From the NCBI GenBank assembly GCA_032139905.1, contig JAQJDB010000004.1, forward strand, positions 62,001-126,000: 64,000 bases of DNA, in the 5' to 3' direction. Shown piece after piece: positions 26,268-40,785 of this stretch. This stretch comes from Nitrospira sp. MA-1 (GTDB taxonomy: Bacteria; Nitrospirota; Nitrospiria; Nitrospirales; UBA8639). The notes below the pieces were generated by a model. That model saw only the letters and a list, made by a program, of their open reading frames with translations. It made no database searches and had not been told where the DNA came from. The position numbers and the translations under genes are program-made. How positions within the stretch are numbered: the first letter of the stretch is position 1; every line of letters begins with the position of its first letter.

Positions 26268-26516
26268 ATACCGTCAAACGTATCGTGTAAGACCTCTTCT
26301 TTCCGGGGCGACAGACCCCCCGAGAATGAAACAGGGACTTACACGATTTTTTTGTGCAAACCCTCCGTGGTCTCCTGAAAGCAGGAACAATCCCACAAGG
26401 ATCCAGGAGTTGTGTGATAGGGCAGCAACGGTGGCCGAAGTGGGCTGACACCTGAATATGTTGAATCGTGTGTGTAAATTTTTGTAGTTTTTTGTGAAAA
26501 GAAAGAAGGATACGTG
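26268..26516 (+). promoter_or_regulatory. structured leader, copy B
   Basis: This is the second copy of the leader at 23400-23670. TCGTGTAAG (26283-26291) pairs with CTTACACGA (26338-26346), followed by T7 (26347-26353). Inside, GGGG (26305-26308) pairs with CCCC (26316-26319). Downstream, TCCTG/CAGGA (26373-26386) and CACAA/TTGTG (26394-26398 with 26410-26414) can form further stems, and the copy ends in the shared GAAAGAAGGA ribosome-binding site. Base changes between copies often keep pairing (GGGG/CCCC here against GGGG/CCTC in copy A; CACAA here against GCAA with a G-U in copy A). There is only one 5' arm, unlike copy A. Confidence 0.5.
26283..26353 (+). terminator. terminator-like hairpin in leader B
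   Basis: A 9-bp outer stem, an inner GGGG/CCCC stem and a T7 tail. It lies 222 bases after the usp stop and 164 bases before the next start, so it could serve either as a terminator of sulP-usp or as an attenuator of the next gene. Confidence 0.65.
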
Positions 26517-27524
26517 ATGGTAAAAAAGATTGTGGCCAAAATGGGTGAGGGTATCAAGAATGCCTCCGAGATTGGCTATCATATTGTAATTTTGTGTCTG
26601 AGTGCGGGGATTGCGATGTCGCTCCCGACCGCGGCCAGAAGTTTTCTGACCTATTGGACAAGAGTAGAAACAGAAAAAATGTCGATCGTGGCCTTGGAAA
26701 TAGGCGTCGCGGCGTTACTGATTGTGGTGATGACCTATCTCCGACGGAGTTGGCAGGATCGGAAGCTGGCCAAAATGGCGATCGATGCCGGCTTCGTGTC
26801 ATTTTTCCCCAAACGGGCGCGACGGGCTGAGGATGGGATTCGCAAACTTCGGCAGACCCAGGGGCGTGGCCGAACGGTCCTGGTCATCGGGTCAAGCGGG
26901 TATGACACGTTGCGTGACCAGGTGGGGGACTTATCGACCATTCTGGATAAATGTCTGGGAGCCAACATCATGCTGGTAAACCCCTTTAGCCAGGGTGCCA
27001 GTGCACGCATCCGGGCCATTGCCGATCCGTTAATGTCGATTGAGAAATATCGAGCGGGCGTCAGGCAAAGTATTGAGTTGCTCAAAAGGCTTCAGGGAGT
27101 CGGAAAATCCGTCAAACTGAAACTCTATTCGGATCCTCCGCTTCTGAAATTGGTTATTCTTGGAGATTATCTTTGGATGCAGCATTACCATACCGATCTG
27201 GATATTCAGGAGATGCCGGAATACGTGCTGCGACACAATGCGAACGACCACGGGCTGTACACCTTGTGTTATCAATACTTTGTGCAGCGTTGGGAGCAGA
27301 CCGACATACCGGAATACGATCTGGTTACCGATGAGCTGGTCTATCGGGATAAAAATGGCCGGGAAATCAGAAGGGACCAATTCTGGCCGGATGACATCCC
27401 GCAAAACCTAGAGCAGGGGAGAGAGATCCCCGTGTTGTCAACGCCACAGATGACCAGGGAACAGCCCGCTCTGGAGCATGCCATGTGTCGAACAGCAACT
27501 GAAATTGTACGACCGCATTTCTGA
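26517..27524 (+). CDS. two-helix membrane protein with cytoplasmic PLD-like/unknown domain
   Basis: ATG 26517 follows AGAAGGA by 6 bases (a GTG directly before it is also possible). Of 335 aa, two membrane helices lie at the start (IVILCLSAGIAMSLPTAARS and IVALEIGVAALLIVVMTYL), followed by a basic segment (FFPKRARRAEDGIRKLRQ). The soluble domain from about residue 115 reads TVLVIGSSGYDTL, then ANIMLVNPFSQGASARI, KLYSDPPLLKLVILGDYLWM and QHYHTDLDIQEMPEY. The alternation of strands and helices, with NPFSQ and a late strand GDYLWMQHY, recalls phospholipase-D-like sensor domains, but I see no HKD catalytic motif. The function is unknown. It is preceded by leader copy B. Confidence 0.72.
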   Translation: MVKKIVAKMGEGIKNASEIGYHIVILCLSAGIAMSLPTAARSFLTYWTRVETEKMSIVALEIGVAALLIVVMTYLRRSWQDRKLAKMAIDAGFVSFFPKRARRAEDGIRKLRQTQGRGRTVLVIGSSGYDTLRDQVGDLSTILDKCLGANIMLVNPFSQGASARIRAIADPLMSIEKYRAGVRQSIELLKRLQGVGKSVKLKLYSDPPLLKLVILGDYLWMQHYHTDLDIQEMPEYVLRHNANDHGLYTLCYQYFVQRWEQTDIPEYDLVTDELVYRDKNGREIRRDQFWPDDIPQNLEQGREIPVLSTPQMTREQPALEHAMCRTATEIVRPHF

Positions 27525-27592
27525 CCCTCTGAATAGGATATCTCCCAACTACTCCCCACCAAGGCTCGGACAAAAAGACTCGTATCCTTTCG

Positions 27593-27810
27593 TCCGACGC
27601 CTGCCGGCTGGCCCAAGTAGGGACGCTCTCATCCGCTGGCGGGCCCTGTTTGAGCCCGGCGAGTTGATCCGCCCTCCTGCGTCCCTACATTTCAATAAAG
27701 CCAGACGGGGCGTCACTGGTTTTGGGCCCTTTTGCCGAAACAAAAGGGCCTCGCCTGCCGGGGGCGAAACCCGGCATTACGGAACATCACGTTGACACGA
27801 ATGTTCAGTG
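27593..27810. repeat. compound repeat, copy R1
   Basis: GC-rich repeat beginning CCGACGCCTGCCGGCTGGCC and containing a near-perfect hairpin (GGGCCCTTTTG and CAAAAGGGCC around 27724-27750), ending near ACATCACGTTGACAC. Close copies lie at 29501-29742 (partial), 35935-36270 and 37305-37683 plus 39488-39535. Open frames across it are artefacts of the repeat. Confidence 0.85.
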
Positions 27811-27827
27811 CAAAATTTTGAACTCCA

Positions 27828-27990
27828 AAGACCCGCAGCATTGCACCCAGGCTTCCTAAAAAGTCGGTCATGATCGTCATAGGGTCTAGGTGCGGTGAGT
27901 GGTCTGGTATGGTTCCGGCTAGAGTTGGTCATGATCGCGGAGAACTCGTGGTCACACTTCTTACACTTTTCACGGGCGTTCATGTGTAAC
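27828..27990 (-). pseudogene. decayed nnrS fragment fused to small CxxC peptide, copy 1
   Basis: On the minus strand a short start (MNAREKCKKCDHEF) leads into sequence that matches an internal part of the intact nnrS at about 39690-39800. In one frame both read SYDGHD/PYDDHD followed by PGCNSAG/PGCNAAG. Stops and shifts make it non-functional. Related fragments lie at 28436-28552 and 36340-36436. Confidence 0.55.
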
Positions 27991-28125
27991 CCAATGGCTG
28001 TCGGTTGAGCGCCTGTTTATCGGAGGCCAGGAAAGAGACCGGACGTGCGGGGAATTTTCGGCTATGTATGTTCGGATGGCTTCCATATCACGGAGTGCTT
28101 GGGGAGACCAAATGATTTGAGTCAC
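27970..28125 (-). pseudogene. truncated ParE-type toxin
   Basis: The frame starts at GTG 28125, which overlaps the antitoxin stop, and reads VTQIIWSPQALRDMEAIRTY, then IAENSPHV, the exact opening of RelE/ParE-family toxins. After about 28 codons the similarity stops, and the remaining 23 codons are unrelated. The region that holds the catalytic or gyrase-binding part of ParE is therefore lost. The break coincides with the edge of the repeated nnrS-derived sequence. It is almost certainly inactive. Confidence 0.65.
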
Positions 28126-28304
28126 AATCCGAGCCGACGCTTGACTTGGTCATGCGGAATGCCTTCTCCCGCATCAAGTTCAGCCAAGCCTGCATCAATC
28201 TTGGCGAGAAATACAAGCCGCTCAATGGCGTCGTCATATGTCGCATCAGATGGCAAATTCTGCAAGGACTCCAGAATGCGGTCTCGTATGGTTTCAGATG
28301 ACAT
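28122..28304 (-). CDS. antitoxin of a ParDE/RelBE-like pair
   Basis: This 60-aa acidic, helical protein (SSETIRDRILESLQNLPSDA, then ERLVFLAKIDAGLAELDAGE and VKRRL at the end) is typical of antitoxins partnered with ParE/RelE toxins. The toxin start overlaps its stop by 3 bases, the usual coupling. A TATAAT-like box lies just before its ATG. With the toxin truncated, it now stands as an orphan antitoxin, which could still neutralise related toxins. Confidence 0.75.
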   Translation of the reverse strand: MSSETIRDRILESLQNLPSDATYDDAIERLVFLAKIDAGLAELDAGEGIPHDQVKRRLGL

Positions 28305-28308
28305 ATTC

Positions 28309-28343
28309 CGATTATACCTTTCCCCTACGGGGATTAAAACTGT
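28309..28343 (-). promoter_or_regulatory. candidate promoter/operator of the antitoxin gene
   Basis: On the minus strand TATAAT (28311-28316) lies 6 bases before the antitoxin ATG, which would give a nearly leaderless mRNA. A perfect palindrome TCCCC-GTA-GGGGA (28321-28333) sits just upstream, in the position of an autoregulatory operator. The -35 match is weak. Confidence 0.35.
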
Positions 28344-28354
28344 CAGAAGCGTCC

Positions 28355-28378
28355 GCCTAACAGCTCGGTGTTAACGGC
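28355..28378 (-). repeat. attC-like half site (L'-R') before the antitoxin cassette
   Basis: The minus strand reads CGCCGTTAACACCGAGCT followed by GTTAGGC, which fits the right half of an integron attC site (core GTTRRRY at 28355-28361). The matching left core was not found within about 80 bases, so only half is visible. The antitoxin gene starts about 50 bases beyond the core. Confidence 0.4.
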
Positions 28379-28435
28379 GTGGTAGTCCAAACCCAAAAAA
28401 TCTGTTTGTCCCCCATAGACCCATAGCATCATCCT

Positions 28436-28552
28436 GGTTCACCAGAAAGTACCTCACGATCGCCACGGGGTTTGCATGGCCATGGCTGGGGCGGATCATG
28501 ATCGCAGAAAAACTCGTAACCATTCTGCGAAATACTCGTCAAGAAAATCCAT
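28436..28552 (-). pseudogene. decayed nnrS-derived fragment, copy 2
   Basis: The minus strand begins just inside an R'-like site (GTTAAATTGCACATGGA) and shares GCGATCATGA and the following GGC-rich segment with copies 1 and 3. It has several stops. It lies between the antitoxin cassette and the 293-aa gene. Confidence 0.4.
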
Positions 28553-28557
28553 GTGCA

Positions 28558-28647
28558 ATTTAACGATTCACTTGAGCTGCCACCGAGCGTACCGAGTCAA
28601 CTGACCTGCGGGCGGGTCAGCAGTCCACCTCCAATTACTCGTTAGAT
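28558..28647 (-). repeat. attC-like recombination site
   Basis: The minus strand starts with ATCTAAC (28641-28647), which overlaps the last codons of the 293-aa gene, and ends with GTTAAAT (28558-28564), fitting the RYYYAAC and GTTRRRY cores. The right half reads GGTGGCAGCTCAAGTGAATC, much like known attC right halves, and the left half has TTGGAG against CTCAA, which leaves one unpaired G as attC sites do. An inner hairpin CTGACC/GGTCAG (28601-28620) gives a variable loop. Total length is 90 bases. Confidence 0.42.
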
Positions 28648-29516
28648 GCCCACTCCTGAGTAAGGAGTGTTGTGGCGGCGTGTATGTACTTCCGGCAATC
28701 GAACTCGTACCTCTTCAAGAAGATCCCAGAATCGCATCTTTGCAAAGCCCAAAGCAGGATCCCGAGCCTTTCGTTGACGAGATTCCGCTCAAGGTATTTC
28801 CGAGCGATGGACTTGTGTATCCGCCGCCCGAGTTTCGCTGAAACATAGCAATAGGTTATCGCGTCCCAATCACGTAGGTTCTGAGTAACGTCAGGTGACT
28901 CTTGGCCAATTCGTATATAGAGTCTTGCCACTTCCGAGGGGTGAGTCAACACTTCGGAAATTCCTACCCGATTCTCTTCGAGGAATGTGGGTGAGAAGTG
29001 TTGTATGAGCAGGTCCGCAGATGCCGGATCTCGGCATGAATTCCAGGATCGCAGTACGAGATGTTTAGGAATCCGTCGACCTTCAGCGGATAGACTCTTA
29101 TATCCGCGCTGACGCATTCGAGTGTACGGCGAGGCAAGGAAGTATCGTTGAATTCTTCGGCGAGTGCGAGTATCACAAACCTCCCCTATTTTACTCAAGC
29201 AAAGCCCGTAACTTTCTCGTTCTCGGTACTTCGCTTTCGGTACCAGCCGAAGTAGCCGGCTAATAATTCGCCGTCCAAAAGAGCGATTCCCATCAGCAAG
29301 ATTTTCGCAAATAACCTGGAGAGAGATGTCCCGTAGTAATAGGTCTGAGTCCAGATTAGAGAATAACAGTCGTTCAATTTCGTCGCCGTCAAGGCAACGG
29401 CAGAGGTTGCGGAGGAGCTTACGTTCATCTGTTCCAGGTTCGCCGGGCGGTATACTTCTGATGTGGGCGACGCGATCCACTTTCTGGTATCTACCGATTT
29501 TTATGCTGATCGGCAT
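28635..29516 (-). CDS. hypothetical protein, cassette-borne
   Basis: I do not recognise this family. The 293-aa product (from ATG 29516; frames up to 29540 start inside repeat sequence) is rich in Arg and Leu and mostly helical, with repeat-like helices (ERLLFSNLDSDLLLRDISLQ, SFGRRIISRLLRLV, HLVLRSWNSCRDPASADLLI) that recall HEAT-type scaffolds. No catalytic motif is visible. It ends WASNE, the stop lying inside the attC-like site, and its start adjoins the edge of repeat copy R2. Both are what one expects of an integron cassette. Confidence 0.6.
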   Translation of the reverse strand: MPISIKIGRYQKVDRVAHIRSIPPGEPGTDERKLLRNLCRCLDGDEIERLLFSNLDSDLLLRDISLQVICENLADGNRSFGRRIISRLLRLVPKAKYRERESYGLCLSKIGEVCDTRTRRRIQRYFLASPYTRMRQRGYKSLSAEGRRIPKHLVLRSWNSCRDPASADLLIQHFSPTFLEENRVGISEVLTHPSEVARLYIRIGQESPDVTQNLRDWDAITYCYVSAKLGRRIHKSIARKYLERNLVNERLGILLWALQRCDSGIFLKRYEFDCRKYIHAATTLLTQEWASNE

Positions 29517-29742
29517 AGCAACCCTCTTGACTAGCATCAAAGCTCATGGATCGGCCTGGTATGGACAGGCGGATTCTTGGTTAATTATGGAATTAAGTCA
29601 AGTTGGATGACACAAAAAAGGTACCTGACGGAGTTGGTCGTGTTGCTGCCCGGGCCTTTTCCATGAGAGGAGATCTGGTGAACATTTTTCTTCCTTGATC
29701 CGACACCTGCCGGCTGGTCCAAGAGAGGGACGCTCTCATCTG
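29501..29742. repeat. compound repeat, copy R2 (truncated)
   Basis: It matches copy R4 from GATCGGCATAGCAACC onward, through ATTCTTGGTTAATT and AGTCAAGTTGGAT, to CGACACCTGCCGGCTGG and GGGACGCTCTCATCTG. It then breaks off where an IS3-type sequence begins at about 29746, so the IS insertion or a later deletion removed the rest. Confidence 0.75.
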
Positions 29743-29745
29743 AAG

Positions 29746-30575
29746 GGTAAATGACCGACCGAGCAGCAACGGATCCCTGAACTCGAATCGGAAAATCGCC
29801 GTTTACGGATGGAGCGTGAAACCAAAAAAAAGCCACGGCCTTTTTTTGCCAAGGAACACACATGAGGTCTCGATTCATCGAGCAGCAGCAGAAGACCTGG
29901 CCGATCACCCTCACGTGTGGTGTGTTGGGCGTCTCCCGAAGTGGCTATTATGATTGGACAGCGCGTGATCTGAGGCAGGGCATTCGTTCGAATATCGCGC
30001 TAGAGAGATGAATGTAGGAGATCGTTACTGAACACCGCCAACGCTATGGCGCGCCACGGATTACCGAGGCGTGACAGGATGAAGGCCTGAGCTGTCGTGA
30101 GAACCGTGTGGCTCGACGCATGCGTGCTTTGGGACTGAAAGCGATTCAGGCCAAGAAATTTACAGTCACCACTGACTCGACTCACGCAAAGCCGGTGGCA
30201 CCCGGTCTGATCGAGCAGGACTTCCGTGCGGCGGCGCCCAATCAGAAATGAACCAGTGACAGTACCTCTGTCTGGACTGAGGAGGGATGGCGGTATCTCG
30301 CCGTCGTGATGGACTTGTACTCACGGGCGATGGTCGGATGGTCGATGAATCGACGGATGACACAACAGCCGGTGTGTGACGCGCTGACCATGGCCGTGTT
30401 GCGTCGCGGCTTCCCCAAGGGCACGATTATCCACTCTAATCGTGGCAATCAGTATGGTTCTCCGCGCTATCGGCCATTGATTAGGAACCATGGTCTGTGC
30501 GAAAGCAGGGGGGCAGGGCCGCCTGAATGGTACATTTCAAATTTGCTACAAGAATGTCTGATGGGGAAGGATTGA
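29746..30575 (+). pseudogene. IS3-family transposase remnant
   Basis: The region reads as an OrfA end (RMERETKKKATAFFAKE) followed by OrfB (WPITLTCGVLGVSRSGYYDW, RYGAPRIT, RRMRALGLKAIQAKKF, YLAVVMDLYSRAMVGWSMNR), but with at least four in-frame stops and a frame change. The second catalytic Asp in the usual HSDRG motif is Asn here (IIHSNRGNQYGS), and the C-terminal part with the catalytic Glu is missing. It is dead. It lies inside the cassette region and truncates repeat R2. Confidence 0.8.
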
Positions 30576-30627
30576 GAAGATGAGGTAACTAATCTTCACA
30601 TTTAAGCAGCATACAACAAGCGTCAGT

Positions 30628-31317
30628 TTACGGGTTGCTGGATTCCGCCAGCGTAAACTTTATGTTTACCGGTTCCATTCCAAGCATTGGCCAGATCGTT
30701 AAAATGATATCTTGCCCACTTTTGGAGGCAATGGACTCATCAAGCCAGCGCGCATCAGGGATTATTTGGTCATCCAGAGCCAGCAATAAATCACCGGGCA
30801 TTAGCTTCGCCGCGTGAGCGGGGCTGCCGTCAACAACATCTTGAACAATGACTGCGACATCACCCCCAATGCGTTGGTGTGCGCTGACTGGCGCGTCCTC
30901 ATAGTACGCCCCAAAACTAAATTTTCTGACAGCCCGCCAGTACGTTGCCAAGTACAAACTTCCATTCCGCCACTGAAGCACCTGAGCCGCATCGAGACTA
31001 CCACCAAAGTTCATGGCCGAGATAGGTGCAACTATCGGCAAATGCCCGCCGACTAAATACGAGTAGCCAACCATGGCGTAACCCTGCCGGTACATCTTCA
31101 CAGACTCTTGGTCCATGTGTGTGACCCAATGATGGTCGATGGATTTCGCCTTAATTAGTCGGTAGTCCTCAGGATCGAGCAACGGATGATAACTCATGCT
31201 GTAAGGGTAGGCACAGCCGCCCAAGCCAGAGGCCAGTATCGACACGAGGAGAACGTAAGCAAATTGTTGACCTGTAGAGCCGTTCAATTTCTTGAGTATG
31301 AGTATAACCAAATCCAC
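30628..31317 (-). CDS. lipoprotein with C-terminal PDZ domain
   Basis: Residues up to about 35 form a lipoprotein signal (VLLVSILASGLGGC, lipobox LGGC). The middle (about 36-150) is rich in Tyr and His with no recognised fold. Residues about 150-225 form a PDZ domain (VAVIVQDVVDGSPAHAAKLM, then PGDLLLALDDQII). PDZ domains bind peptide C-termini; there is no protease domain. It lies 15 bases downstream of another lipoprotein gene on the same strand, probably one transcript. Confidence 0.75.
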   Translation of the reverse strand: MDLVILILKKLNGSTGQQFAYVLLVSILASGLGGCAYPYSMSYHPLLDPEDYRLIKAKSIDHHWVTHMDQESVKMYRQGYAMVGYSYLVGGHLPIVAPISAMNFGGSLDAAQVLQWRNGSLYLATYWRAVRKFSFGAYYEDAPVSAHQRIGGDVAVIVQDVVDGSPAHAAKLMPGDLLLALDDQIIPDARWLDESIASKSGQDIILTIWPMLGMEPVNIKFTLAESSNP

Positions 31318-31332
31318 ACCGGTCCTGGGCGC

Positions 31333-31920
31333 TTAGCGTCGCCCTGGAAATGCGCGCGGTAAAGCGCGCCCCATTCGGCCATTGGCTTGAACTAACCCAC
31401 CAACGGCGGTGGCGAATTCCGCCAGTTCCAGTTCGGTGAACAGGGGGCCTCGCGCCTGGGTCCAGCCCAGGCTTGAAACATCACTTAGAGTTTCTGCACG
31501 GCGTGGGGCTTGGTTGACGTATTGCTCTCGATAGTTGGTCAAACCAATTTTTTCGCAAGTCATTCCGCCTTGCATTCCTCCGCCCACATTGATGCACTCC
31601 CTGATTTCAGCCGATCGAGATTGGTATGCCGGCGGATTATGTAAGAGTTGCTGCTGAGCCAAACCATTAATTTGAAGTTGCGTCGAATACGCAGCACTGA
31701 TATCGGCCAAGCCTTGTGTCGTGTTGACCAGGGCATCTCCCATGGCTTTGATGTTGGTCGGTTTGGCATTGACCCAGGGGGACTCACGGTAGAACGATTC
31801 CACGCTGGTACGGACTATGGTGCCGTCCTTACTGGTCGGTGCAGTGGTGGTACAGCCGCTGGTCGCAATCACCCCAGTTACCATGACTATTAAGAGATAA
31901 TCGGATCGAATGCGTGCCAT
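31333..31920 (-). CDS. lipoprotein of unknown function
   Basis: The 195-aa product has a clear lipoprotein signal (SDYLLIVMVTGVIATSGC, lipobox ATSGC). The rest is hydrophilic and helical with Gln- and Ala-rich stretches (TTQGLADISAAYSTQLQING, LAEFATAVGGLVQANGRMG) and a basic C-terminus. I do not recognise the family. It precedes the PDZ lipoprotein gene with a 15-base gap, so the two probably work in one envelope process. Confidence 0.7.
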   Translation of the reverse strand: MARIRSDYLLIVMVTGVIATSGCTTTAPTSKDGTIVRTSVESFYRESPWVNAKPTNIKAMGDALVNTTQGLADISAAYSTQLQINGLAQQQLLHNPPAYQSRSAEIRECINVGGGMQGGMTCEKIGLTNYREQYVNQAPRRAETLSDVSSLGWTQARGPLFTELELAEFATAVGGLVQANGRMGRALPRAFPGRR

Positions 31921-32523
31921 AATCCTTTCACCTTAGAGTATGTGAATTTGCGCAGTTTGTGTTGTTCCAAAGCGTGCCGCTTCGAAATAACTACAGAGGG
32001 CGCATTTTCTTTTCTATTGTTGTCCATGTCAATAGTGAGAAACATAAAATAAGGATAGCTTTGATGTGAAGAGCAGTTATTAGAATACTTGGATCATCAT
32101 TATGCATAATCGAATCATTGTGCAGGATAGTTTGTGCTTTTAAGATTTTTTCTAGTTCGTGAGAATCCCGAGTTTCACTCAAAATTAATCGGTGGCGAAT
32201 CAAACCCGTATTTATTTGCAGATCTCAACAATAATGCTCAGCTGGACTTCATGCATGGAGAATACTGCCAGATCTTATTTTGGAGTTAAGGCTCCGCAAT
32301 GGGATTCTGGTGTATAAAGTGGTCTATGCATGAGATATGATACACAGTTTCAAATAAGGATGACTCTGCCGAGAAAAAACACTGATTTTTGGTTAGGGTA
32401 GTACAAGGTATGAGTCGTACTTTTGGCTGAAGTTAAATCTTTATTACTTGTGTTAATTCGTGCGTCATGACACTTTGTATTGATGGTACAGGAAGTAAAA
32501 TGAGGCAGGTGCTGGAGAAGATA
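31921..32523. other. AT-rich divergent intergenic region
   Basis: About 600 bases between the minus-strand lipoprotein pair and the plus-strand collagen-like lipoprotein gene. Promoters for both probably lie here, but none is distinct enough to mark. Frames inside look non-coding. Confidence 0.45.
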
Positions 32524-34722
32524 ATGAGGATTTCAATAAATTTCAGAGTGCGAGCTCAACGGGTAAGGAAAGGTGCCTTGTCTTATGTAGGAGTTTCTCT
32601 CATCATAATTTTTCTGGGGGGCTGTAGTACCACAGAACGTTCCGAAACCAAACAAGAGACTGCGAGAAAAGCCACTATTGAAGAACTTCATTTTTTACCG
32701 ATGGCTACCTCCTATAGCTGTTGGCCGTGTGCTCTCAGTTCCATGGGTCGCTCTAATCTACCCAATGAAGATCAGCAAGCTAACTACTTCGAGGCTGGTG
32801 CGGATATCCCCATTGTTGCAGAATTGGAAAATGACAAAAATCAGCGGTTTTATATGAAGCCGTCCAGCGTGCGCTCCCAAAAGGATTTGGCCTTGCCTGC
32901 GACGCGGGTCTTGTCTCCTAGTGATTTCACTATCACTTTATCGGGCTCAGAGTGGGAGAAAAAAGGCACACTCTTCATGATTGAAGGTTATCTCCATTTT
33001 CGCTGGGGTGACAAGCTAAATCCTGAAGTCATTATAGAGGGACTGGATGATGTCGAAATCATTTTGAGAATTCAATATAAAAACGGGCCTATACTGACGA
33101 GGACATTGCGCCCTAATACGATAAATACCTGGGGATTGCCGCCAAAGCTTGCCCACACACAGCCTCTTCAGCTAGACACGAGTTTAGCATATGTCGTTAA
33201 TGACGATGGCATGCCTGCTGTCATCGAAGGGAGAGAGGTCCCCAGTACGAGTAAATGGGGTTGGTATTCGCAACGTGAGAAACCCAATGGATACCAAGAA
33301 AAGCTATTAGGGATAAAGGCCGATGCATGGAACGTTATTGAATTTGATTTCACACAAGGAATAAATCACTTCTCCGGGAAACAGTGTACAGGAATCCACC
33401 CTTCTCGCCTGATCGTGACAGGACAAAACCTTGATGTCCGTAAGCAGGGTTGCCAGTTGCAAATAAGGGCGCAGCAAATCACAGGCCCCCATTCCTTAAC
33501 GGTGGCAATGGTTGGCGCGCCCGAAGTAAATATTACCATTCCGGTTGGGATAAAACCCATGCGGGCGAACCTACCGCTTTCAGAAAAAATTACCAAGGTC
33601 TCCTGGGGGCACATTAACAACGCGAGAGGCTACCAAGATCGCACAAAAGTCCTTCCTGGAGATCGGCTCGAATATTCGGTGAAATTTCATGACCAATGGT
33701 ACGAGTGGTATGGCCATGAAGACGGTGTTTGGCAGAAATTGAAATTTGAAACGAGTGAAGGTATTACCATTGAGCCCGGCCCGACAATACGACAATGGGA
33801 TGATCCTGAGTTTTACGTCGTCATTGATAGAGACCTCGCCAACGCGCTAACCGGTGCGTTGACTATGGAAGTCTGGTACGAAGGACGGCGTGATCTTGCC
33901 AAAAGTCTTGAATACACGCTCGATAGCACAAGCCTCTATAGTCCTTATTTGTTTAAAGCAAACCAAGGCACCCTGGAAAAGAGAACTGGTCGTGATGGGC
34001 GTCAGGGTCGTGATGGGCGTAAGGGGATAGACGGCCGGAGTGCACAGATCCAGAGCAGAGCCAATGGTGAACATGCTGGTGATGGCGAAGCTGGCGGGGA
34101 TGGTCACAACGGCAATCCCGGCGTAAAACCCGATCCATTAAATCTTACGGCTATGCAAGTCAAAGGCATAGATGGGCAGGACTATGTCCTGTTTGGTTTT
34201 CAACGGGGTGCAGAAACAGAAGAAATATCTTTGCTGATACTGGGCGAACCGTGGAAGGTTGAATTGATCGGTGGTCCTGGGGGCAAGGGAGGACGAGGCG
34301 GTCATGGGGGAGCAGGTGGCGATGGTGGAACTGGTGATATGAATCTGCGTGGCGGCAATGGGGGGCAAGGGGCCGATGCTGGCAATGGTGGAGATGGCGG
34401 AGATGGTGCTGATGGCGGCGATATTCGATTAGAGATCGCTGACCGGAAGCTGGAAACGATGTTTCAGTTAATCACCGCAGGTGGCCACGGTGGTGCTCCG
34501 GGTGAAGGTGGGACGGGTGGTAGAGCAGGAAGGGGTGGTCCTGCGCTTATGAATGGACGAAATGGGAAGGATGGTCGCGCGGGCCGTGATGGTTCCGCTG
34601 GTTACCCTGGACGGAGCGGACAACCGGGCCGTGTTGAGGTGAACATCGCTAATACTGCTAGCAAGCTTTGGTCGCGAGCCTCGGCCGAAATGCGTGCGCT
34701 ATTGGTAAAGCCGGCCCTCTGA
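32524..34722 (+). CDS. large lipoprotein with collagen-like Gly-rich C-terminal region
   Basis: ATG 32524 follows GGAG by 6 bases; the earlier ATGs lack this. The 732-aa product has a basic N-terminus and signal helix ending in the lipobox FLGGC. Residues about 50-480 are a beta-rich region with no recognised domain. From about 490 there are collagen-type Gly-x-y runs (GRDGRQGRDGRKGIDGRS), then a globular insert (about 545-580), then a long Gly-rich stretch (GGPGGKGGRGGHGGAGGDGG, GEGGTGGRAGRGG, GRAGRDGSAGYPGRSGQPGR). A short non-repeat end follows. Such regions can form triple helices and act as surface stalks or adhesins. It is the only large plus-strand gene among minus-strand cargo. Confidence 0.75.
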   Translation: MRISINFRVRAQRVRKGALSYVGVSLIIIFLGGCSTTERSETKQETARKATIEELHFLPMATSYSCWPCALSSMGRSNLPNEDQQANYFEAGADIPIVAELENDKNQRFYMKPSSVRSQKDLALPATRVLSPSDFTITLSGSEWEKKGTLFMIEGYLHFRWGDKLNPEVIIEGLDDVEIILRIQYKNGPILTRTLRPNTINTWGLPPKLAHTQPLQLDTSLAYVVNDDGMPAVIEGREVPSTSKWGWYSQREKPNGYQEKLLGIKADAWNVIEFDFTQGINHFSGKQCTGIHPSRLIVTGQNLDVRKQGCQLQIRAQQITGPHSLTVAMVGAPEVNITIPVGIKPMRANLPLSEKITKVSWGHINNARGYQDRTKVLPGDRLEYSVKFHDQWYEWYGHEDGVWQKLKFETSEGITIEPGPTIRQWDDPEFYVVIDRDLANALTGALTMEVWYEGRRDLAKSLEYTLDSTSLYSPYLFKANQGTLEKRTGRDGRQGRDGRKGIDGRSAQIQSRANGEHAGDGEAGGDGHNGNPGVKPDPLNLTAMQVKGIDGQDYVLFGFQRGAETEEISLLILGEPWKVELIGGPGGKGGRGGHGGAGGDGGTGDMNLRGGNGGQGADAGNGGDGGDGADGGDIRLEIADRKLETMFQLITAGGHGGAPGEGGTGGRAGRGGPALMNGRNGKDGRAGRDGSAGYPGRSGQPGRVEVNIANTASKLWSRASAEMRALLVKPAL

Positions 34723-34811
34723 TAAAAACTATTTTTAGCAGGTACTAACCTTCCTCAACCTCATCTGGATTTCGAGCGAGAAGAAATTCGACTTACGTTC
34801 ACCAATGTTCA

Positions 34812-34845
34812 ATCTAACGGATCGGAACTCAACTGCGAGCCACGA
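34812..34845 (-). repeat. attC-like right half after the DUF5677-like gene
   Basis: The minus strand reads GTGGCTCGCAGTTGAGTTCC, then GATCC, then GTTAGAT (core at 34812-34818), directly after the gene stop. The right-half layout resembles the site at 28558-28647. The base run after the core (TGAACATTGG) also resembles the run after the cores at 28558 and 36436. Confidence 0.38.
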
Positions 34846-34849
34846 CAAC

Positions 34850-35713
34850 CTATTGCGCCTGGACCTCCTTCCGCATCGCCTCGATTCGCTCATCGAAGTC
34901 CGAACAGTCGAGGATTCGCGTATAGGTGGCGAGTAAATCTGCGATAAGGGCAGCAGCGAGCAAACTGGAGTTGATTTCTTGTTCTTTCGACATGAGCCGT
35001 GGGTGAATCACTTCGTCGCCGTCCGCAGCGATGAGGGAGTCCATGAGCGACCGCATACCCGAGTGTACATATGGGTTCGTTTCCTGGTAGAGAGCCACAA
35101 TGCGCAATGGTCGAGTGGGATCCGCTTCTTGCTCACGCGTAACTTTCTCATAGGCTTCAACCCGTGCCACCAAGTCCAACCCTTCCCAGTCCCAGTAATC
35201 GGAGCCATCGCTCCTTTTATGAGAGAAGCGGTCTCGATGGACATCGAGTTCGGTTTTGAGTTCCGCGTCGGTCCTGCCAGCTTGCCGCAATATGTGGGGG
35301 AACCGTCTGCCTATTTCTAGTAGAAGTCGCCAGCGATTCACGTCACTGAAATCGTGGAAGTTCTTTGCACGGTCGATCCGTTTCTCCGGTTCACACTCAA
35401 TGAACTGGAGGTTGATGAATGTCTCACAAAGAACCCTCATGAGAACATTCTGAACTGGGCTTTCTCGAAGATCCAGAACTCCTCGGCAGAGCTCTATTAT
35501 ACGGACGAGATGTGCGTACGCGACATAGCTCAGGAGTTCACGATCTCCAGGGCGCTCGACACGGCGAGGTCGATAGGTTGCTTCGAAGTCTTGGGCGAGC
35601 CGAATAGCCTTCGTGAGTACTTGTCGGTGCTGCTCCTGCCGCGCTGAGAGGGCTGGTGCAAGCCACGGGTCGCTTTCGGGTTCAGTCAAATCGGACCCCT
35701 CGCCGCCTAACAA
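34850..35713 (-). CDS. DUF5677-like helical protein, cassette-borne
   Basis: The product (up to 287 aa; TTG 35713 lies in the core site, so a start further in is possible) is helical with the pattern of DUF5677 proteins: an early helix with ARQEQHRQVLTKAI, RVLCETFINLQFIE, a charged RDRFSHKRSDGSDYWDW segment, and YQETNPYVHSGMRSLMDSL with the conserved His. The family's role is unknown; members occur in accessory regions. It is bracketed by GTTRRRY core sites at 35705-35711 and 34812-34818, a cassette-like arrangement. Confidence 0.65.
   Translation of the reverse strand: MLGGEGSDLTEPESDPWLAPALSARQEQHRQVLTKAIRLAQDFEATYRPRRVERPGDRELLSYVAYAHLVRIIELCRGVLDLRESPVQNVLMRVLCETFINLQFIECEPEKRIDRAKNFHDFSDVNRWRLLLEIGRRFPHILRQAGRTDAELKTELDVHRDRFSHKRSDGSDYWDWEGLDLVARVEAYEKVTREQEADPTRPLRIVALYQETNPYVHSGMRSLMDSLIAADGDEVIHPRLMSKEQEINSSLLAAALIADLLATYTRILDCSDFDERIEAMRKEVQAQ
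35705..35711 (-). repeat. attC core-like site GTTAGGC before the DUF5677-like gene
   Basis: GTTAGGC on the minus strand lies within the first codons of the gene, as the first bases of integron cassettes do. The preceding bases (CGCTTAAACGTTATTATT) are compatible with an attC left arm but are not convincing alone. Confidence 0.35.
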
Positions 35714-35934
35714 TAATAACGTTTAAGCGAATCCGCATAAAGCTCCGATCCGCCAAATTCTGTCCGTATAACACGCCATTAAATTTTCTAAACCCAACAC
35801 CATTTTCGTCGCCGTCTCAATGTGGGGCGCCTAAGAAGCTAAATTGCAGCATCTAATGCGAAACGGCAAAACATTTTCTTTCATAGCCCTCTAATCCCAT
35901 ATACCCAACTGGAATGACCGAGAATGATTCTTGG

Positions 35935-36270
35935 TTAATTGACGGAATTAGTCAAGCTGGATAGCTCCGAGTAGGTACTTTAATGTGTCGAGAGTGGGGA
36001 TGACCTGGCCTTATTGCTAGAGCAAAAACTGGTGAACATTCTTCCTTTTTGATCTGACGCCTGCCGGTTGGCCAACGGAGGGCCGCTCACATCTGCTGGC
36101 GGGCCTTGTTTGAGCCCGGCGAGTTGGTCCGCCCTCCTGCGTCCCAACATGTTAATAAAGCCAGACGGGGCGTCACTGATTTTGGGTCCTTTTTCTGAAA
36201 GAAAAGGACCTCGCCAGCCGGAGCGAAACCCGGCATCACAGATCATCACGATGTCACGAAAGTTCGGTGC
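35935..36270. repeat. compound repeat, copy R3
   Basis: It matches R4 from GATTCTTGGTTAATT through the CTGCCGGTTGGCC segment, the TTTGAGCCCGGCGAGTTGGT segment and a hairpin (GGTCCTTTTTCTG with AAAGAAAAGGACC), to GCGAAACCCGGCATC and beyond. It shows moderate divergence from R1 and R4. Confidence 0.8.
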
Positions 36271-36339
36271 ACAAGTGCGCTGTCCAAACTGCCCGTACAT
36301 TTTTTTTGGCCAAGGCCAAGATGGATTTCTGATTCATCT

Positions 36340-36442
36340 TGTAAAGGTGCCCGGTGTGGCCCAGCCTGGCGCCAGGTATGATTGCTGAAGGATCACATCC
36401 ACACCGTGAACACTTGTCACGGATGTCCATGTGTATTCTAAC
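36340..36442 (-). pseudogene. decayed nnrS-derived fragment with CxxC start, copy 3
   Basis: The minus strand starts at a GTTAGAA core-like site (36436-36442), then reads MDIRDKCSRCGCDPSA, followed by ARLGHTG, which matches the TRASLGHTG segment of intact NnrS. It decays afterward. The CxxC start is shared with copy 1. Confidence 0.45.
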
Positions 36443-36443
36443 G

Positions 36444-37280
36444 TCACCCTTCACCCCGTAGCTCTCCCGCGTCGGAATGCAAGGACGTGTCAGGTTCACT
36501 TTGACCAGGGATTGGAAAATCCTGAAATTCAAATCCATCAGGTCCAAGGGAAGTGAACAGAATGCCGAAGGGTGATTTAATTGGAATAATTGTTTTATTG
36601 ATAGGCGGGGCGTATTTTTCGAAATAGTAACGTTGAAGAATATCTCTTACATTGACAAGCAATTGCTTAATGGTTTGGTGCGTTGAAACGAATGTATTAG
36701 CTAGGTCTATCGACTCTCCTTGCTCATCAACGTAAATATTCGGGATTGTGACTACATACTTAGTATCTACCTGTTTTACCCAAGCATGGTATCCTGCATC
36801 TCGGAATTGGGAATTGACGTGATACGAGTGATTTCGTATTTTGTTCGCAGCGCAATGGAATATACCTTTGCTCACTTCAAATTGCGCACTTAGTTCTTCC
36901 CCTATATCTTGTTCTTCGACAAAACATTTCCCGAGTAGATTTTTCTTATGGTTTATACCGATTAGGTTGACCTCGAAAAGTGCCTTTGCCGCGCCAAGAT
37001 ATGCTTCTATTTCATATTTCGAGGTCACATCGCTCGTTAGAATTTCAGCTCCCTTAGGGGTGAGTTGCAAGATTTCAGCTGGTATTTGCAAATCACGCTC
37101 GAAGTGCTCCCATACGTTTGTTGCATGATATAAAACCCTATCGGCTAAACGGATAAAAATGAACGAAAAATTCACTAACCCCGTGTCAGATACAGTCTTT
37201 GCTATATGAAGCATCATTAATTCTAAGGAGGACCTTAGTTGCCGATCAGCCTTGTACTCTATTATATAATTCTGGCGCAT
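36444..37280 (-). CDS. hypothetical protein, cassette-borne
   Basis: I do not recognise this 278-aa protein. It begins MRQNYIIEYKADRQLRSSLE and looks like a helical, soluble protein. There is one Cys-containing segment (NLLGKCFVEEQDIGEEL) and GIFHCAANKIRNHSYHVNSQ with clustered His. The stop is immediately followed by a GTTAGAA core-like site, and its start adjoins the edge of repeat R4, so it is placed like the other cassette genes. AT-rich codon use differs from the core genes nearby, which fits transfer. Confidence 0.65.
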   Translation of the reverse strand: MRQNYIIEYKADRQLRSSLELMMLHIAKTVSDTGLVNFSFIFIRLADRVLYHATNVWEHFERDLQIPAEILQLTPKGAEILTSDVTSKYEIEAYLGAAKALFEVNLIGINHKKNLLGKCFVEEQDIGEELSAQFEVSKGIFHCAANKIRNHSYHVNSQFRDAGYHAWVKQVDTKYVVTIPNIYVDEQGESIDLANTFVSTHQTIKQLLVNVRDILQRYYFEKYAPPINKTIIPIKSPFGILFTSLGPDGFEFQDFPIPGQSEPDTSLHSDAGELRGEG

Positions 37281-37304
37281 TTAGCCTTCCATGAACCTAA
37301 TGAT

Positions 37305-37683
37305 TTTTAGGTGGATCGGCTTAGCAACCTTCATAGTTAGCCTCACCGCCCATCAACCGGACTGGAATAGCACAGGCGAATTCTTCGTTAATTTAAGAAT
37401 GGAGTCAAGTTGGATAACTCCGAAAAGACTCCTGAGTTTGTCGATTGTGTTGTTGACCCGGCCTTTTCGCGAGACCAAATCTGGTGGACATTCATCTCCC
37501 CTGTTCCGACGCCTGCCGGCTGGCCCAAGTAGGGACGCTCTCATCTGCCGGCGGGCCTTGTTTGAGCCTGGCGAGTTGGTCCGCCCTCCTGCGTCCCTTC
37601 ATTTCAATAAGGCCAGACGGGGCGCCAATGGTTTTGGGTCCTTTTGCCGAAACAAAAGGACCTCGCCTGCCGGGGCGAAACCC
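37305..37683. repeat. compound repeat, copy R4 (interrupted by an IS)
   Basis: It starts near GATCGGCTTAGCAACC, includes ATTCTTCGTTAATTT, CCGACGCCTGCCGGCTGGCC and a perfect 10-bp hairpin GGTCCTTTTG/CAAAAGGACC (about 37637-37662), and stops at GGGGCGAAACCC, where the IS4-family element is inserted. It resumes after the element at 39488. Confidence 0.88.
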
Positions 37684-37720
37684 ATAGCTGTTAAGCTAAG
37701 GGGACAGAAAACTTTCAACT

Positions 37721-37743
37721 AGCGCTGGCCTGGCGCTTTTTTT
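37721..37743 (+). terminator. terminator at the IS entry
   Basis: AGCGC (37721-37725) and GCGCT (37733-37737) form a short GC stem, followed by T7. It stands between the left IS end and its genes, where it would block transcription from outside, a known protection device of ISs. Confidence 0.55.
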
Positions 37744-37754
37744 GTGCTATATTA

Positions 37755-37779
37755 CCGATAGCATTATATAGGCTATCGG
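37755..37779 (+). promoter_or_regulatory. inverted repeat before the IS genes
   Basis: CCGATAGC (37755-37762) and GCTATCGG (37772-37779) form an 8-bp inverted repeat 18 bases before the first IS gene. It could be an operator or an RNA hairpin that hides the AGGAGG ribosome-binding site at 37787-37792. Confidence 0.4.
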
Positions 37780-37797
37780 TTTAACCAGGAGGTCCTC

Positions 37798-38130
37798 ATG
37801 ACGCGAGAAGAACGCACCCTGCAACGCATTAAGACTCAGCTGATTGACCTCGGCCCCGTCCTGCCGGGGAGCCTGAGCACCCAATGGAATGTCTGCGGCA
37901 CGACCGGGTGTCAGTGTAAAGACCCTCAGGAGCCGAAGAAGCATGGGCCTTACCATCAATTGAGCTTCACCTTGGCCGGCAAGAGTTCCACCCTGTTTAT
38001 TCCCAAGAAGGATCTGGCGGAGGTCCGGCGGCGGCTCAAACGGTATCAGCGTTTGAAAACGTTGACGACCGACTGGGTCCAGGCTGAGGTCGCGCTGGCT
38101 CGCTGCCAGGGCTTCGGGAGCCGAGCATGA
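37798..38130 (+). CDS. DUF6788-type IS accessory protein
   Basis: This 110-aa product has AGGAGG 5-6 bases before ATG 37798. It has QWNVCGTTGCQCKDPQEPKK, then HGPYHQLSF, the Cys-containing pattern of the DUF6788 family that often precedes transposase genes. The C-terminal half is a basic helix (LAEVRRRLKRYQRLKTL). Its stop overlaps an ATG at 38127 from which the transposase is read. The role is unknown, perhaps DNA binding or control of transposition. Confidence 0.8.
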   Translation: MTREERTLQRIKTQLIDLGPVLPGSLSTQWNVCGTTGCQCKDPQEPKKHGPYHQLSFTLAGKSSTLFIPKKDLAEVRRRLKRYQRLKTLTTDWVQAEVALARCQGFGSRA

Positions 38131-39475
38131 GGGCCGCCCTGTTCGGGGTTTTGGAGGGGTTTAAAAAAAACGCCTCAATAGGCTGGCTAAGGAAACGGGG
38201 TTCGCTCAACGCCAAGGCGTGCTGCAGCCGTATGACTTCCTGGTGCTGATGACCCTAGGACAATTCGGGATGAAGCATCCCTCGCTGGGGGGGATGGTGG
38301 GGGCTCTGAAAGCCCGCATGAGTCGGGAAGCCCTGCATCAGCGGTTTACGGCCTCTGCCGCTCAGTTTCTCAAGCGCTGCTTGCACACGATCTTGCACCA
38401 GAAGTTCCAGGGGGCGGGTATACGCACGATGTTGCTGCGGCCTTTCGGCCGCGTGTTGTTGGTTGATAGTTCGAGTTGGGATGTCAGCCCAAAGCTGCAG
38501 AAGGTCTGGCCTGGGGCTGGCGGTAATGCCTCCCCAGCTAATTGCAAGATCCAAGTAGCCTATGACTACAAGCAGGGAGAACTGATCTTCCTGGAGACCA
38601 CCGCTGGGACGGTGCCGGATAATCGCTACACGGATCGGCTGCCCGCTCTCCTCAACCGGCAGGATCTCGTGCTTATGGACCAAGGCTATTTCAAGCTGCG
38701 CACCCTGAACGCCATCATGACCCGCGACGCGTATTTTTTAACCCGGTTCATGGTGGGCACCACGGTCGAAGTGGCCCAGACCGGCGCGCGCCTCGAGCTT
38801 GACCGCTTCTTGACCCAGGGGCCCGTCCTGACCCGGGAGATCCAGGTGCGCCTGGGCCAGGGGCCTCAGCAAACCCCTGCCTGCCGCCTCGTGTGCTTGC
38901 GCGTGAGTCCCCAGATAGCCCGGCAACGGCGGCGGCGCGTCAAGGCTCACGCCCAGCAACAAGGCCGGACCGCTCGGACCTCGACTCTGACGTGGTGTGA
39001 CTGGACGCTTTTCATCACGAATGTGCCTGAAGCCTGGTTGCCCCTCGATCTAGTGCGAGCCTTGTATAGCCTGCGCTGGCAGATCGAGTTGGTGTTCAAA
39101 CAATTCAAATCGATTCTTCAGGTGCACCACTCGACGACCGGCAATGAACATCGAGTGCGCTGTGAACTCTATGGCAAATGGATTGCGGCGGTATTGGTCC
39201 ATCGTATTCATACGTGGGCCAACCAAGCGCGGTGGCTGACCGCGGGACAAGAGATCAGCCTCGAGAAGTTGTACAAGCGACTCCAGGAGCGAGCCTTTCA
39301 GCTCGCACAGCAGTTGATCATCTCGTTCAGCCAAGGGAGGACCCACCTCATTCGTGAACTCGAGCCGTTACTCCGGCACTGTACCAAACAGTCCCAACGA
39401 TCCCGAATGACGACCTTAGAGATGCTGGAAGCCCGAGTCGACCCCAAATTGTCTCCCAGCAAGGGCCCGGCTTAG
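38127..39475 (+). CDS. IS4-family DDE transposase, read through a -1 frameshift
   Basis: The zero frame starts at ATG 38127 (overlapping the upstream stop: ATGA) and reads MRAALFGVLEGFKK. At A8-C (38163-38171), containing the slippery heptamer A AAA AAC, a -1 step joins it to RLNRLAKETGFAQRQ, then GVLQPYDFLVLMTLGQFG, the regular IS4 N-terminus. Without the shift the frame ends early and the domain start is missing. Catalytic residues are Asp in LLVDSSSWDVSP, Asp in LVLMDQGYF, and Glu in the YREK signature YSLRWQIELVFKQFK (Y-2-R-3-E-6-K). Loss of one A from an A9 run by mutation or sequencing error would give the same picture. Confidence 0.85.
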
Positions 39476-39487
39476 CTTAACAGCTAT

Positions 39488-39535
39488 GGGGCGAAACCCG
39501 GCAACACCGAACATCACGTTGACACCAAAGTAAGG
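39488..39535. repeat. compound repeat R4, distal part
   Basis: It continues R4 after the IS: GGGGCGAAACCCGGCAACAC, then ACATCACGTTGACACC, as in R1 (27768-27800). It ends just before the 3' end of nnrS. Confidence 0.75.
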
Positions 39536-39552: not shown

Positions 39553-40707
39553 TTACTCCTCGTCGAGGCTGGGGCGCAAAAGAAATGGTCCATACACAAC
39601 AGCGAACAGCAGATAGCCACTGCTCCAGACTATTGCCGACAGGCCCAGCACAAGAGAGGTTGAAAAGTCCGTGGTCGGACCAAGTACCCGCAGAATTGCA
39701 CCCAGGTTCACGAGACTGTAGATCATGACCGTCATAGGACCTGCATGCCGTGCCCGTCCCGTATGACCCAGGCTGGCGCGGGTCATGATGGCCAGGGTCA
39801 TCGAACCCACGGCACCGGTCGTGAGCACGTGGACCGCATTCTCCTGGCGCAACCCTAACCCTAGAATCGCCGCACCCAGGATAAGCAGCGACATCGCCAA
39901 CCACCCATAACCCACGTGCAGGATGAGCACCAACGGTTCACGCCAGGTGATCCAGCCGTACCAGCGCAACAGACGAATGAGATTCACCAATCCCGCTGCC
40001 ATCAAAAGCCAGCCGGTCACCAGGCCCTCTGGCTGAACCGTCCAGGCGAGAGCGGCAATCGCTGCAAGAAGGATCGACACGCCGTCGAAACGGGAAAAAG
40101 ACGCAGGTTGTTGGGGCATGCCGCGCTCGCTCAGATAATCAAGGGTAAAACTGGGAATGACGCGCCCACCGATCAGCGCCAACAGCAGGATGATGACCGA
40201 GAGCGCCATGCGCCCGGGAAGTTCCGTTGCGGAGTCGTTCAGAGCCGACATGTGGAAGAGCAGATTGGCAATTGCATAGAGACTGATCAACAGGCCGATC
40301 GGCGAACGATCCCATGCTTTTCCTATCGCGATTTCCCGCCAGACAATGATGGCCAGCGCAACAAGAAAGGCGCCGTCAATGATGGCGCAGACCAAAGCTG
40401 GAGGCCAGGGGATGGCGATGACCAGGCGTCCTGTCAGCCACAATGCCCACAGGATCATCAAGGGCATCTCTTTAATCGGAGGGCGGTCCGTCCAGTTCGG
40501 CATGGCGGTGAAGAGAAACCCTGCGATCACGGCAGGCAGGAAGCCGAAGATCATTTCATGCACATGCCATTCTCGCGGGACATACAGGAAATGGGTGTTG
40601 TCGGCTCCGGAAAGAATCAGGGCCCAGATCGGGAGTGCTATGCCCGCAAAGACGGCGGCGCTCAGGAAGAACGGTCGAAATCCGAAGGAAAAGAATGCAG
40701 GGGTCAT
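39553..40707 (-). CDS. nnrS: NnrS family membrane protein
   Basis: NnrS is a multi-pass heme- and copper-containing inner-membrane protein tied to nitric-oxide stress in denitrifiers. The product starts MTPAFFSFGFRPFFLSAAVF and has the family motif VPREWHVHEMIFGF (His residues likely metal or heme ligands) and about twelve hydrophobic helices, with LHVGYGWLAMSLLILGAAIL and IMTRASLGHTGR near the end. The start at 40707 is chosen because everything upstream of it is dispersed repeat sequence; an ATG at 40752 would translate the repeat. Degenerate pieces of this gene recur in the accessory island to the left. Confidence 0.9.
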   Translation of the reverse strand: MTPAFFSFGFRPFFLSAAVFAGIALPIWALILSGADNTHFLYVPREWHVHEMIFGFLPAVIAGFLFTAMPNWTDRPPIKEMPLMILWALWLTGRLVIAIPWPPALVCAIIDGAFLVALAIIVWREIAIGKAWDRSPIGLLISLYAIANLLFHMSALNDSATELPGRMALSVIILLLALIGGRVIPSFTLDYLSERGMPQQPASFSRFDGVSILLAAIAALAWTVQPEGLVTGWLLMAAGLVNLIRLLRWYGWITWREPLVLILHVGYGWLAMSLLILGAAILGLGLRQENAVHVLTTGAVGSMTLAIMTRASLGHTGRARHAGPMTVMIYSLVNLGAILRVLGPTTDFSTSLVLGLSAIVWSSGYLLFAVVYGPFLLRPSLDEE

Positions 40708-40785
40708 CCTGAGCCCACGGCGAAGGATCTGTGACCAGTGTAACGAGGGCATGGATCAGCCAGATTTTTCGGTTCCCTCAGGATG
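40703..40785. repeat. dispersed hairpin repeat (family 2), copy 1
   Basis: GTCATCCTGAGCCCACGGCG and the distal CCCTCAGGATGAC form inverted ends around GAAGGATCTGTG. It overlaps the nnrS start codon region. Confidence 0.7.

What the first reader, a model, noticed from the sequence alone, without database searches (positions are those of the whole stretch)
27500..37300. Minus-strand cargo genes punctuated by GTTRRRY-like sites: a decayed integron cassette array without integrase (CALIN-like)
Seen: unrelated cargo genes (parD with cut parE, a 293-aa protein, a DUF5677-like protein, a 278-aa protein) all point the same way, and junctions next to them carry integron-core-like heptamers on the minus strand. 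These are GTTAGGC at 28355 and 35705 (before genes), GTTAAAT at 28558, GTTAGAT at 34812 and near-match GTTAGAA at 36436 (after genes), with weaker forms GGTAGAT and ATTAGGT at the start edges of the 293- and 278-aa genes. One site (28558-28647) has both cores, a right half close to known attC sites and an extra unpaired G in the left arm, and it overlaps a gene end reading WASNE. The bases after three of the cores are also alike (about ACATGG). Known: integron cassettes are single genes, same strand, each with an attC site at the 3' end, and often carry toxin-antitoxin or unknown genes. Inference: this is an old cassette array mixed with repeats and ISs. No intI gene is in the window.
Basis: partly seen in the sequence, partly recalled or inferred. 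Interest (0 to 1): 0.8.

Follow-up and report, generated by a model that had tools for sequence, protein, structure and literature searches.

The report
Decayed integron, one attI per cassette
This stretch of a Nitrospira-type bacterium holds the worn remains of an integron, a gene-capturing device, that has lost its recombinase but still shows its landing sites; unusually, each captured gene sits behind its own copy of the landing site.

Summary
An attC covariance model built without any window sequence ranks two of the listed sites first and second in the whole 64 kb (28558-28647, 20.5 bits; 36436-36495, 16.0 bits). Both lie on the minus strand at 3' ends of cargo genes. Bare GTTRRRY heptamers alone are at chance density.
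The more important finding is upstream of the cargo. The DUF5677 gene is preceded by an attI-type site homologous to attI sites that directly follow intact intI genes in other Nitrospirales; the 278- and 293-aa genes follow shortened copies. The family has 36 matches in 14 of 21 congeners, and 26 of 35 non-self alignments stop at GTT, the recombination point. Eleven of 11 copies checked with an attC downstream carry one ORF between attI and attC. No congener has an IntI over the curated cut-off; only 3'-end relics remain.
So this is an intI-less decayed chromosomal integron at an nnrS-adjacent hotspot, built as tandem units, each with its own attI and one cassette, with dispersed repeats and an IS added. 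Cargo differs between species. 'CALIN' is loosely right, but attI is retained and the two modelled attCs are 7.8 kb apart. New variant of a known kind.

The parts
39553..40752 (-). nnrS, left boundary of the hotspot; its 3' end is duplicated in the units
   Evidence: Pfam NnrS 355 bits; orthologues flank the same hotspot in G011, G019, G017 and G020
37690..39487 (+). IS (DUF6788 ORF plus DDE_Tnp_1 transposase) inserted into the repeat between nnrS and the first unit
   Evidence: 33-nt terminal inverted repeats 37668-37700 / 39471-39503; Pfam
37505..37683 (-). copy of the genus-wide ~200-nt dispersed repeat (unit 1)
37380..37408 (-). promoter-like TTGACT-17-AAGAAT before cassette 1
   Evidence: same arrangement in most other units and species (alignment A2)
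37289..37365 (-). relic of intI 3' end (SPVDGR*) plus shortened attI, ending in degenerate core ATTAGGT
   Evidence: E=1e-4 to the intI 3' end/attI of intact integron L124
36444..37280 (-). cassette 1: 278-aa protein of unknown function
   Evidence: no relative in 236 genomes of the order
36436..36495 (-). attC of cassette 1, R' GTTAGAA
   Evidence: 16.0 bits with R1, 18.9 bits with R2
36330..36442 (-). leader (GTTAGAATACACATGG...) joined to a decayed nnrS 3'-end fragment
36053..36231 (-). genus-wide repeat (unit 2)
35927..35955 (-). promoter-like TTGACT-17-AAGAAT before cassette 2
35705..35912 (-). decayed end of intI plus near full-length attI-type site ending in GTTAGGC
   Evidence: homology 35713-35874, best E=2.9e-28; 68% over 205 nt, E=2e-19, to the attI beside intact intI in L124
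34850..35713 (-). cassette 2: DUF5677 protein
   Evidence: Pfam 46.4 bits; private in the order
34812..34855 (-). eroded attC 3' half with R' GTTAGAT, then leader-like TTGAACATTGG
   Evidence: no model hit
29699..29742 (-). fragment of the genus-wide repeat (unit 3)
29573..29601 (-). promoter-like TTGACT-17-AAGAAT before cassette 3
29486..29559 (-). relic of intI 3' end plus shortened attI with degenerate core GGTAGAT
   Evidence: E=1e-5 to L124
28635..29540 (-). cassette 3: 293/301-aa protein of unknown function ending WASNE at the attC R'' box
28558..28647 (-). attC of cassette 3: R'' ATCTAAC, R' GTTAAAT, extrahelical G
   Evidence: 20.5 bits, E=0.0054, best of the window; 19.7 bits with R2
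28405..28564 (-). leader (GTTAAATTGCACATGG...) joined to decayed nnrS 3'-end fragment
28019..28304 (-). cassette 4 (less certain): ParD-like antitoxin ORF and cut ParE-like remnant; GTTAGGC at 28355 upstream
   Evidence: no Pfam hit for the 60-aa ORF
27825..27991 (-). leader (GGTTACACATGAACG...) joined to decayed nnrS 3'-end fragment
   Evidence: 70% to nnrS over 114 nt
27593..27772 (-). genus-wide repeat closing the hotspot before the conserved convergent gene 26514-27524(+)

Best explanation
The region is a decayed chromosomal integron that has lost its integrase. In related Nitrospirales the intact layout is intI, then attI directly behind its stop, then co-oriented cassettes each ending in attC. 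In the window's genus intI is reduced to its last codons or gone, while attI is kept and exists in many copies. Here the platform lies beside nnrS as tandem units: nnrS 3'-end duplicate, a genus repeat, promoter-like site, intI relic plus attI, one cassette, attC, leader. Inferred history: when an IntI was available it inserted cassettes between the G and TT of GTTRRRY at the several attI copies; intI was then lost; homologous recombination or duplication of the nnrS-attI block multiplied the units; repeats and an IS followed. Today the cassettes are probably immobile but may each be transcribed from the conserved upstream promoter-like site. Shown: attC model hits, attI homology, breakpoints at GTT, absence of IntI, variable cargo. 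Inferred: order of events, past IntI action, present expression.
For: attC: two listed sites are ranks 1 and 2 of the window with two models. At the same locus in relatives, attC hits sit at cargo stops: G011 L064 8287-8391 and 13648-13705, G020 L096 1629-1695. attI: the segment before each cassette aligns across species up to GTT and then diverges. It has 36 matches in 14 of 21 congeners; 26 of 35 non-self alignments end at query 171-174, the letters GTT. It directly follows intact intI in G310 (82% over 202 nt, E=5e-46) and G378. Unit geometry: 11 of 11 attI copies checked with a same-strand downstream attC contain one ORF filling a 549-1338 bp span, stop within -6 to +43 nt of R''. IntI: 0 of 21 congeners over cut-off, only relics, against 91 of 396 in the phylum. 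Cargo differs between G000, G011, G019 and G020 at one conserved locus beside nnrS.
Against: attC scores in the window are low (16-20 bits against 25-74 for intact sites), and single-strand folding energy is not better than shuffles (28558-28647 z=0.0; 36436-36495 z=-0.25). The 34812 and 28355 junctions have no full attC. No empty attI-leader site was found. The duplicated nnrS ends are not explained by integron recombination and need another process.
Confidence: 0.92

Rival explanations
1. The genes are an ordinary genomic island assembled by homologous recombination between dispersed repeats and by IS activity; the GTTRRRY heptamers are coincidental.
For: A genus-wide repeat flanks several cargo genes, an IS is present, and bare heptamers are at chance density.
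Against: Model-supported attCs at cargo 3' ends in three species, homology breaks at GTT in most of 36 attI copies, the attI is attached to intact intI elsewhere, and G020 has the units without the repeat.
Confidence: 0.05
2. The units are not dead: an IntI acting in trans, or another tyrosine recombinase such as XerCD, still moves cassettes at the attI copies.
For: The attI core is well conserved among dispersed copies although intI is gone; cargo is private to single genomes; some congener attCs still score 46-58 bits.
Against: No IntI over cut-off in 21 genomes; window attCs are eroded; two of three window attIs have lost most of their length.
Confidence: 0.1
3. The conserved attI segment is kept because it works as promoter and leader for the cassette; recombination is irrelevant now. 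(Compatible with the best explanation as a present-day role.)
For: Promoter-like TTGACT-17-AAGAAT before three cassettes, with the TTGACT hexamer and an A-rich second hexamer at the same place in most units of other species.
Against: The number of promoter-like matches in the region equals that of shuffles (11 against 10.6); the conserved attI core ends at GTT, which fits recombination better than transcription.
Confidence: 0.3

Closest known systems
Chromosomal integron with intI transcribed toward attI (Treponema, PMC3607928; archaeal MAGs with attI immediately downstream of intI, PMC9668308)
   Same: intI, then attI, then co-oriented cassettes with attC; the same layout is seen here in intact Nitrospirales integrons
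   Different: In the window intI is gone and attI is repeated once per cassette instead of once per array
CALIN (cluster of attC sites lacking integrase; IntegronFinder 2.0, PMC9024848, which reports two in Candidatus Nitrospira inopinata)
   Same: attC-bearing cassettes, no intI
   Different: attI retained and multiplied; only two model-detectable attCs, 7.8 kb apart; units separated by nnrS 3'-end duplicates and repeats
Delta-attI-type gene cassettes of mobile integrons (PMC12901181)
   Same: Extra attI-derived sites occur next to cassettes
   Different: In the architectures named in that abstract a truncated attI lies downstream of the ORF; here attI lies upstream and attC downstream
Treponema phagedenis integron remnant (PMC3607928)
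   Same: attC sites and cassettes remain after loss of intI
   Different: No repeated attI platform is described in the passages read

Membership tests
Integron | attC site at cassette 3' end (R''/L''/L'/R' imperfect palindrome) | tested here: met
   28558-28647 and 36436-36495, ranks 1 and 2 of the window with R1 and R2; weak scores; third junction (34812) eroded
Integron | attI site where cassettes enter | tested here: met
   35705-35912 homologous to attI beside intact intI; homology breaks at GTT in most copies
Integron | integron integrase intI | tested here: not met
   no IntI over the TIGR02249 cut-off in the genome or in 20 congeners; only 3'-end relics
Integron | co-oriented single-gene cassettes | tested here: met
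   window cargo all minus strand; 11 of 11 congener units checked hold one ORF between attI and attC
Integron | site-specific recombination at GTTRRRY by IntI | not testable with these tools
   would need a recombination assay
CALIN | two or more attC without intI | tested here: met
   two model-supported attCs; no intI
CALIN | attCs close enough to be clustered (4 kb rule, own knowledge of IntegronFinder) | tested here: not met
   28558 and 36436 are 7.8 kb apart
Delta-attI-type cassette | attI remnant at the 3' side of the ORF in place of attC | tested here: not met
   attI lies 5', attC lies 3'

The most novel reading that the evidence does not exclude
In this Nitrospirales genus the integron has been reorganised into many independent single-cassette expression modules, each with its own promoter, attI, one gene and attC, spread in tandem and over the genome, and still loaded or swapped by an integrase acting in trans (from visiting elements): a multi-landing-pad integron rather than one array behind one attI.
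Probability: 0.12. Interest if true: 0.8.

Novelty: new variant of a known kind. Interest (0 to 1): 0.58.

Why it matters
Integrons are usually recognised by intI or by clusters of attC. Here both signals are weak or gone, but the attI site itself, conserved across a genus and still attached to intact integrases in sister lineages, reveals dozens of remnants that standard searches would probably miss. It shows that attI can be multiplied so that each cassette has its own, which raises testable questions on cassette expression after integrase loss and on how integrons die. It also adds Nitrospira-type bacteria, where the paper found here reports only two CALINs in one species, to the lineages with a rich integron history.

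Tried and rejected
1) Bare GTTRRRY counts: at chance. 2) Home-made arm-pairing scores were replaced by covariance models because background hits at the same score were common. 3) The first set of arrays was fetched from the wrong side of intI: Nitrospirota arrays lie downstream of intI, not divergent. 4) Rfam scan of the window: only a tRNA. 5) Folding energy of single sites: not unusual, so not used as support. 6) Search for an empty attI-leader site: none. 7) Search for the 278-aa and DUF5677 proteins in 236 genomes of the order, to test breakpoints with the same cargo in another place: none found. 8) Idea that the conserved segment before the cargo is part of the dispersed repeat: rejected, since G020 has attI without the repeat. 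10) Idea that the ACATGG leader is nnrS sequence: rejected, it resembles only the other leaders; the nnrS part starts at GCCATCATGACC.
Full report
Setting. The window is G000:C4:62001-126000 of a 4.76-Mb genome in 7 contigs. Congener contigs coincide in length and hit position with named records: G017:C126 with BQIW01000126.1 (Nitrospirales bacterium NPIRA03), G018:C574 with DOFS01000196.1 (UBA8639), G015:C98 with QIDY01000015.1 (SZUA-215). The organism is therefore a Nitrospira-type bacterium of the order Nitrospirales; its own name was not shown.

Observation. Every listed heptamer is present. GTTRRRY alone is not enriched: 9 on the minus strand of 27500-37300 against about 6.7 expected from the window density. 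The case must rest on whole sites and on relatives.

attC model. I collected attC sites from class 1 integrons on plasmids and from integrons of the same phylum. They were aligned (A1) and a covariance model R1 was built with the R and L box pairs and the extrahelical base. No window sequence was used. In an unfiltered scan of 64 kb on both strands the two best matches are 28558-28647(-) at 20.5 bits and 36436-36495(-) at 16.0 bits; the third has 10.8. A wider model R2 (56 sites, again without the window) gives 19.7 and 18.9 bits, next 10.5. Scores are well below most intact sites (25-74 bits) and the folding energy is ordinary, as expected of eroded sites.

Same locus in relatives. The cargo lies between nnrS (39553-40752) and a convergent 336-aa gene (26514-27524). 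The same two genes flank a variable stretch in G011 and G019, and nnrS borders one in G020 and G017. The contents differ: in G011 a DUF6348 protein, a methyltransferase, a 160-aa protein and a TPR-like protein; in G019 two methyltransferases; in G020 a 350-aa protein. R1 and R2 find attC at the ends of G011's DUF6348 gene (L064 8287-8391) and TPR gene (13648-13705), and of G020's gene (L096 1629-1695). G011's 160-aa gene ends in GTCTAAC, an R'' box, with the rest of attC missing.

attI. The segment before each cargo gene is conserved between units and species up to ...GGATCCGCCTAAACATTGTT and then diverges completely (A2). A genus-wide search finds 36 matches in 14 of 21 genomes; 26 of the 35 non-self alignments end at query positions 171-174, where position 173 closes the letters GTT. 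A degenerate 24-base pattern from it, scanned over 84,980 species, gives 13 stretches, all from records named Nitrospira, Nitrospirae, Nitrospirales or Nitrospiraceae. The same segment starts at the stop codon of intact intI genes in G310 (L124; 82% over 202 nt, E=5e-46) and G378 (L178). It also directly follows intI 3'-end relics in G017:C126 and G018:C574. So it is the attI of this lineage, downstream of a co-oriented intI, as described for Treponema (PMC3607928) and archaeal integrons (PMC9668308). In the window the DUF5677 attI (35705-35912) is near full length and matches L124 at E=2e-19, with a few extra bases before GTTAGGC. The 278- and 293-aa copies are shortened but still match the intI end and attI start of L124 (E=1e-4 and 1e-5). 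The former reads SPVDGR* where intact IntI ends SPLDGM*.

Unit geometry. For 11 attI copies in congeners with an attC hit on the same strand downstream, the span from attI GTT to attC is 549-1338 bp and is filled by one ORF starting 8-101 nt after GTT and ending -6 to +43 nt from R''. In tandem places each cassette has its own attI: G000:C7 (L048) attI 5516-5645, ParE cassette, weak attC 6171-6232, attI 7318-7430, DndB-like and further genes, attC 9945-10034; G017:C111 (L248) attI 5374-5547, attC 4517-4605, attI 4024-4193. attI-type copies also occur inside arrays of two genomes with intact intI (L166, L169).

No integrase. TIGR02249 finds no IntI over cut-off in this genome or 20 congeners but does in 91 of 396 genomes of the phylum, including other genera of the family. 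Loss in this genus is the simple reading.

The rest of the unit. After the attC R' core comes a leader of about 56 nt (GTTRRRTTGCACATG...) shared between units and species, joined to a copy of the nnrS 3' end starting at GCCATCATGACC. The G020 copy is 88% identical to its own nnrS and 76-80% to those of other species; the window copies are near 70% or less. This points to duplication of the nnrS-attI block with recombination between copies, not to integron recombination. A dispersed repeat of about 200 nt, found 56 times in the genome and in all congeners, sits between the nnrS copy and attI in G000, G011 and G019 but is absent in G020. An IS splits the first unit. Promoter-like TTGACT-17-AAGAAT lies before three cassettes and the arrangement recurs in most units of other species, so separate transcription of each cassette is plausible but untested; such matches are at chance frequency in the region as a whole.

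Verdict. A decayed, integrase-less chromosomal integron with one attI per cassette. It works like an integron remnant. It is not a complete integron (intI tested and absent), and CALIN fits only loosely because attI is kept and the two detectable attCs are far apart. IntegronFinder 2.0 reported two CALINs in Ca. Nitrospira inopinata (PMC9024848); I found no description of repeated attI platforms of this kind in the papers searched.

Noticed in passing
window 36053-36231 and copies genome-wide (e.g. G000:C3:234862-250207): A dispersed ~200-nt repeat with a 10-bp hairpin, 56 matches in this genome and present in all 20 congeners, in places as clusters about 300 bp apart; nature unknown.
   Followed up: partly
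G000:C7:113500-118100 (L048): A second decayed attI-cassette array in the same genome, with a ParE toxin cassette and a DndB/DpdB-like gene.
   Followed up: partly
L169 10209-10368 and L166 6630-6793 (G167, G317): Extra attI-type copies inside cassette arrays of genomes that still have an intact intI; the one in G317 keeps the last IntI codons (HRGPAGARRPLDSM*).
   Followed up: partly
window 32467-34722: A 751-aa lipoprotein-like ORF on the plus strand with a glycine-rich, collagen-like second half; no Pfam hit. It splits the array between units 2 and 3.
   Followed up: no
window 29750-30600: Remnant resembling an integrase-core (IS3-like) transposase with several stops, judged by eye from the sequence.
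   Followed up: no
G020:C93 (L096) 1341-1580: The duplicated nnrS 3' end is 88% identical to the functional nnrS of the same genome, suggesting recent duplication or gene conversion.
   Followed up: partly
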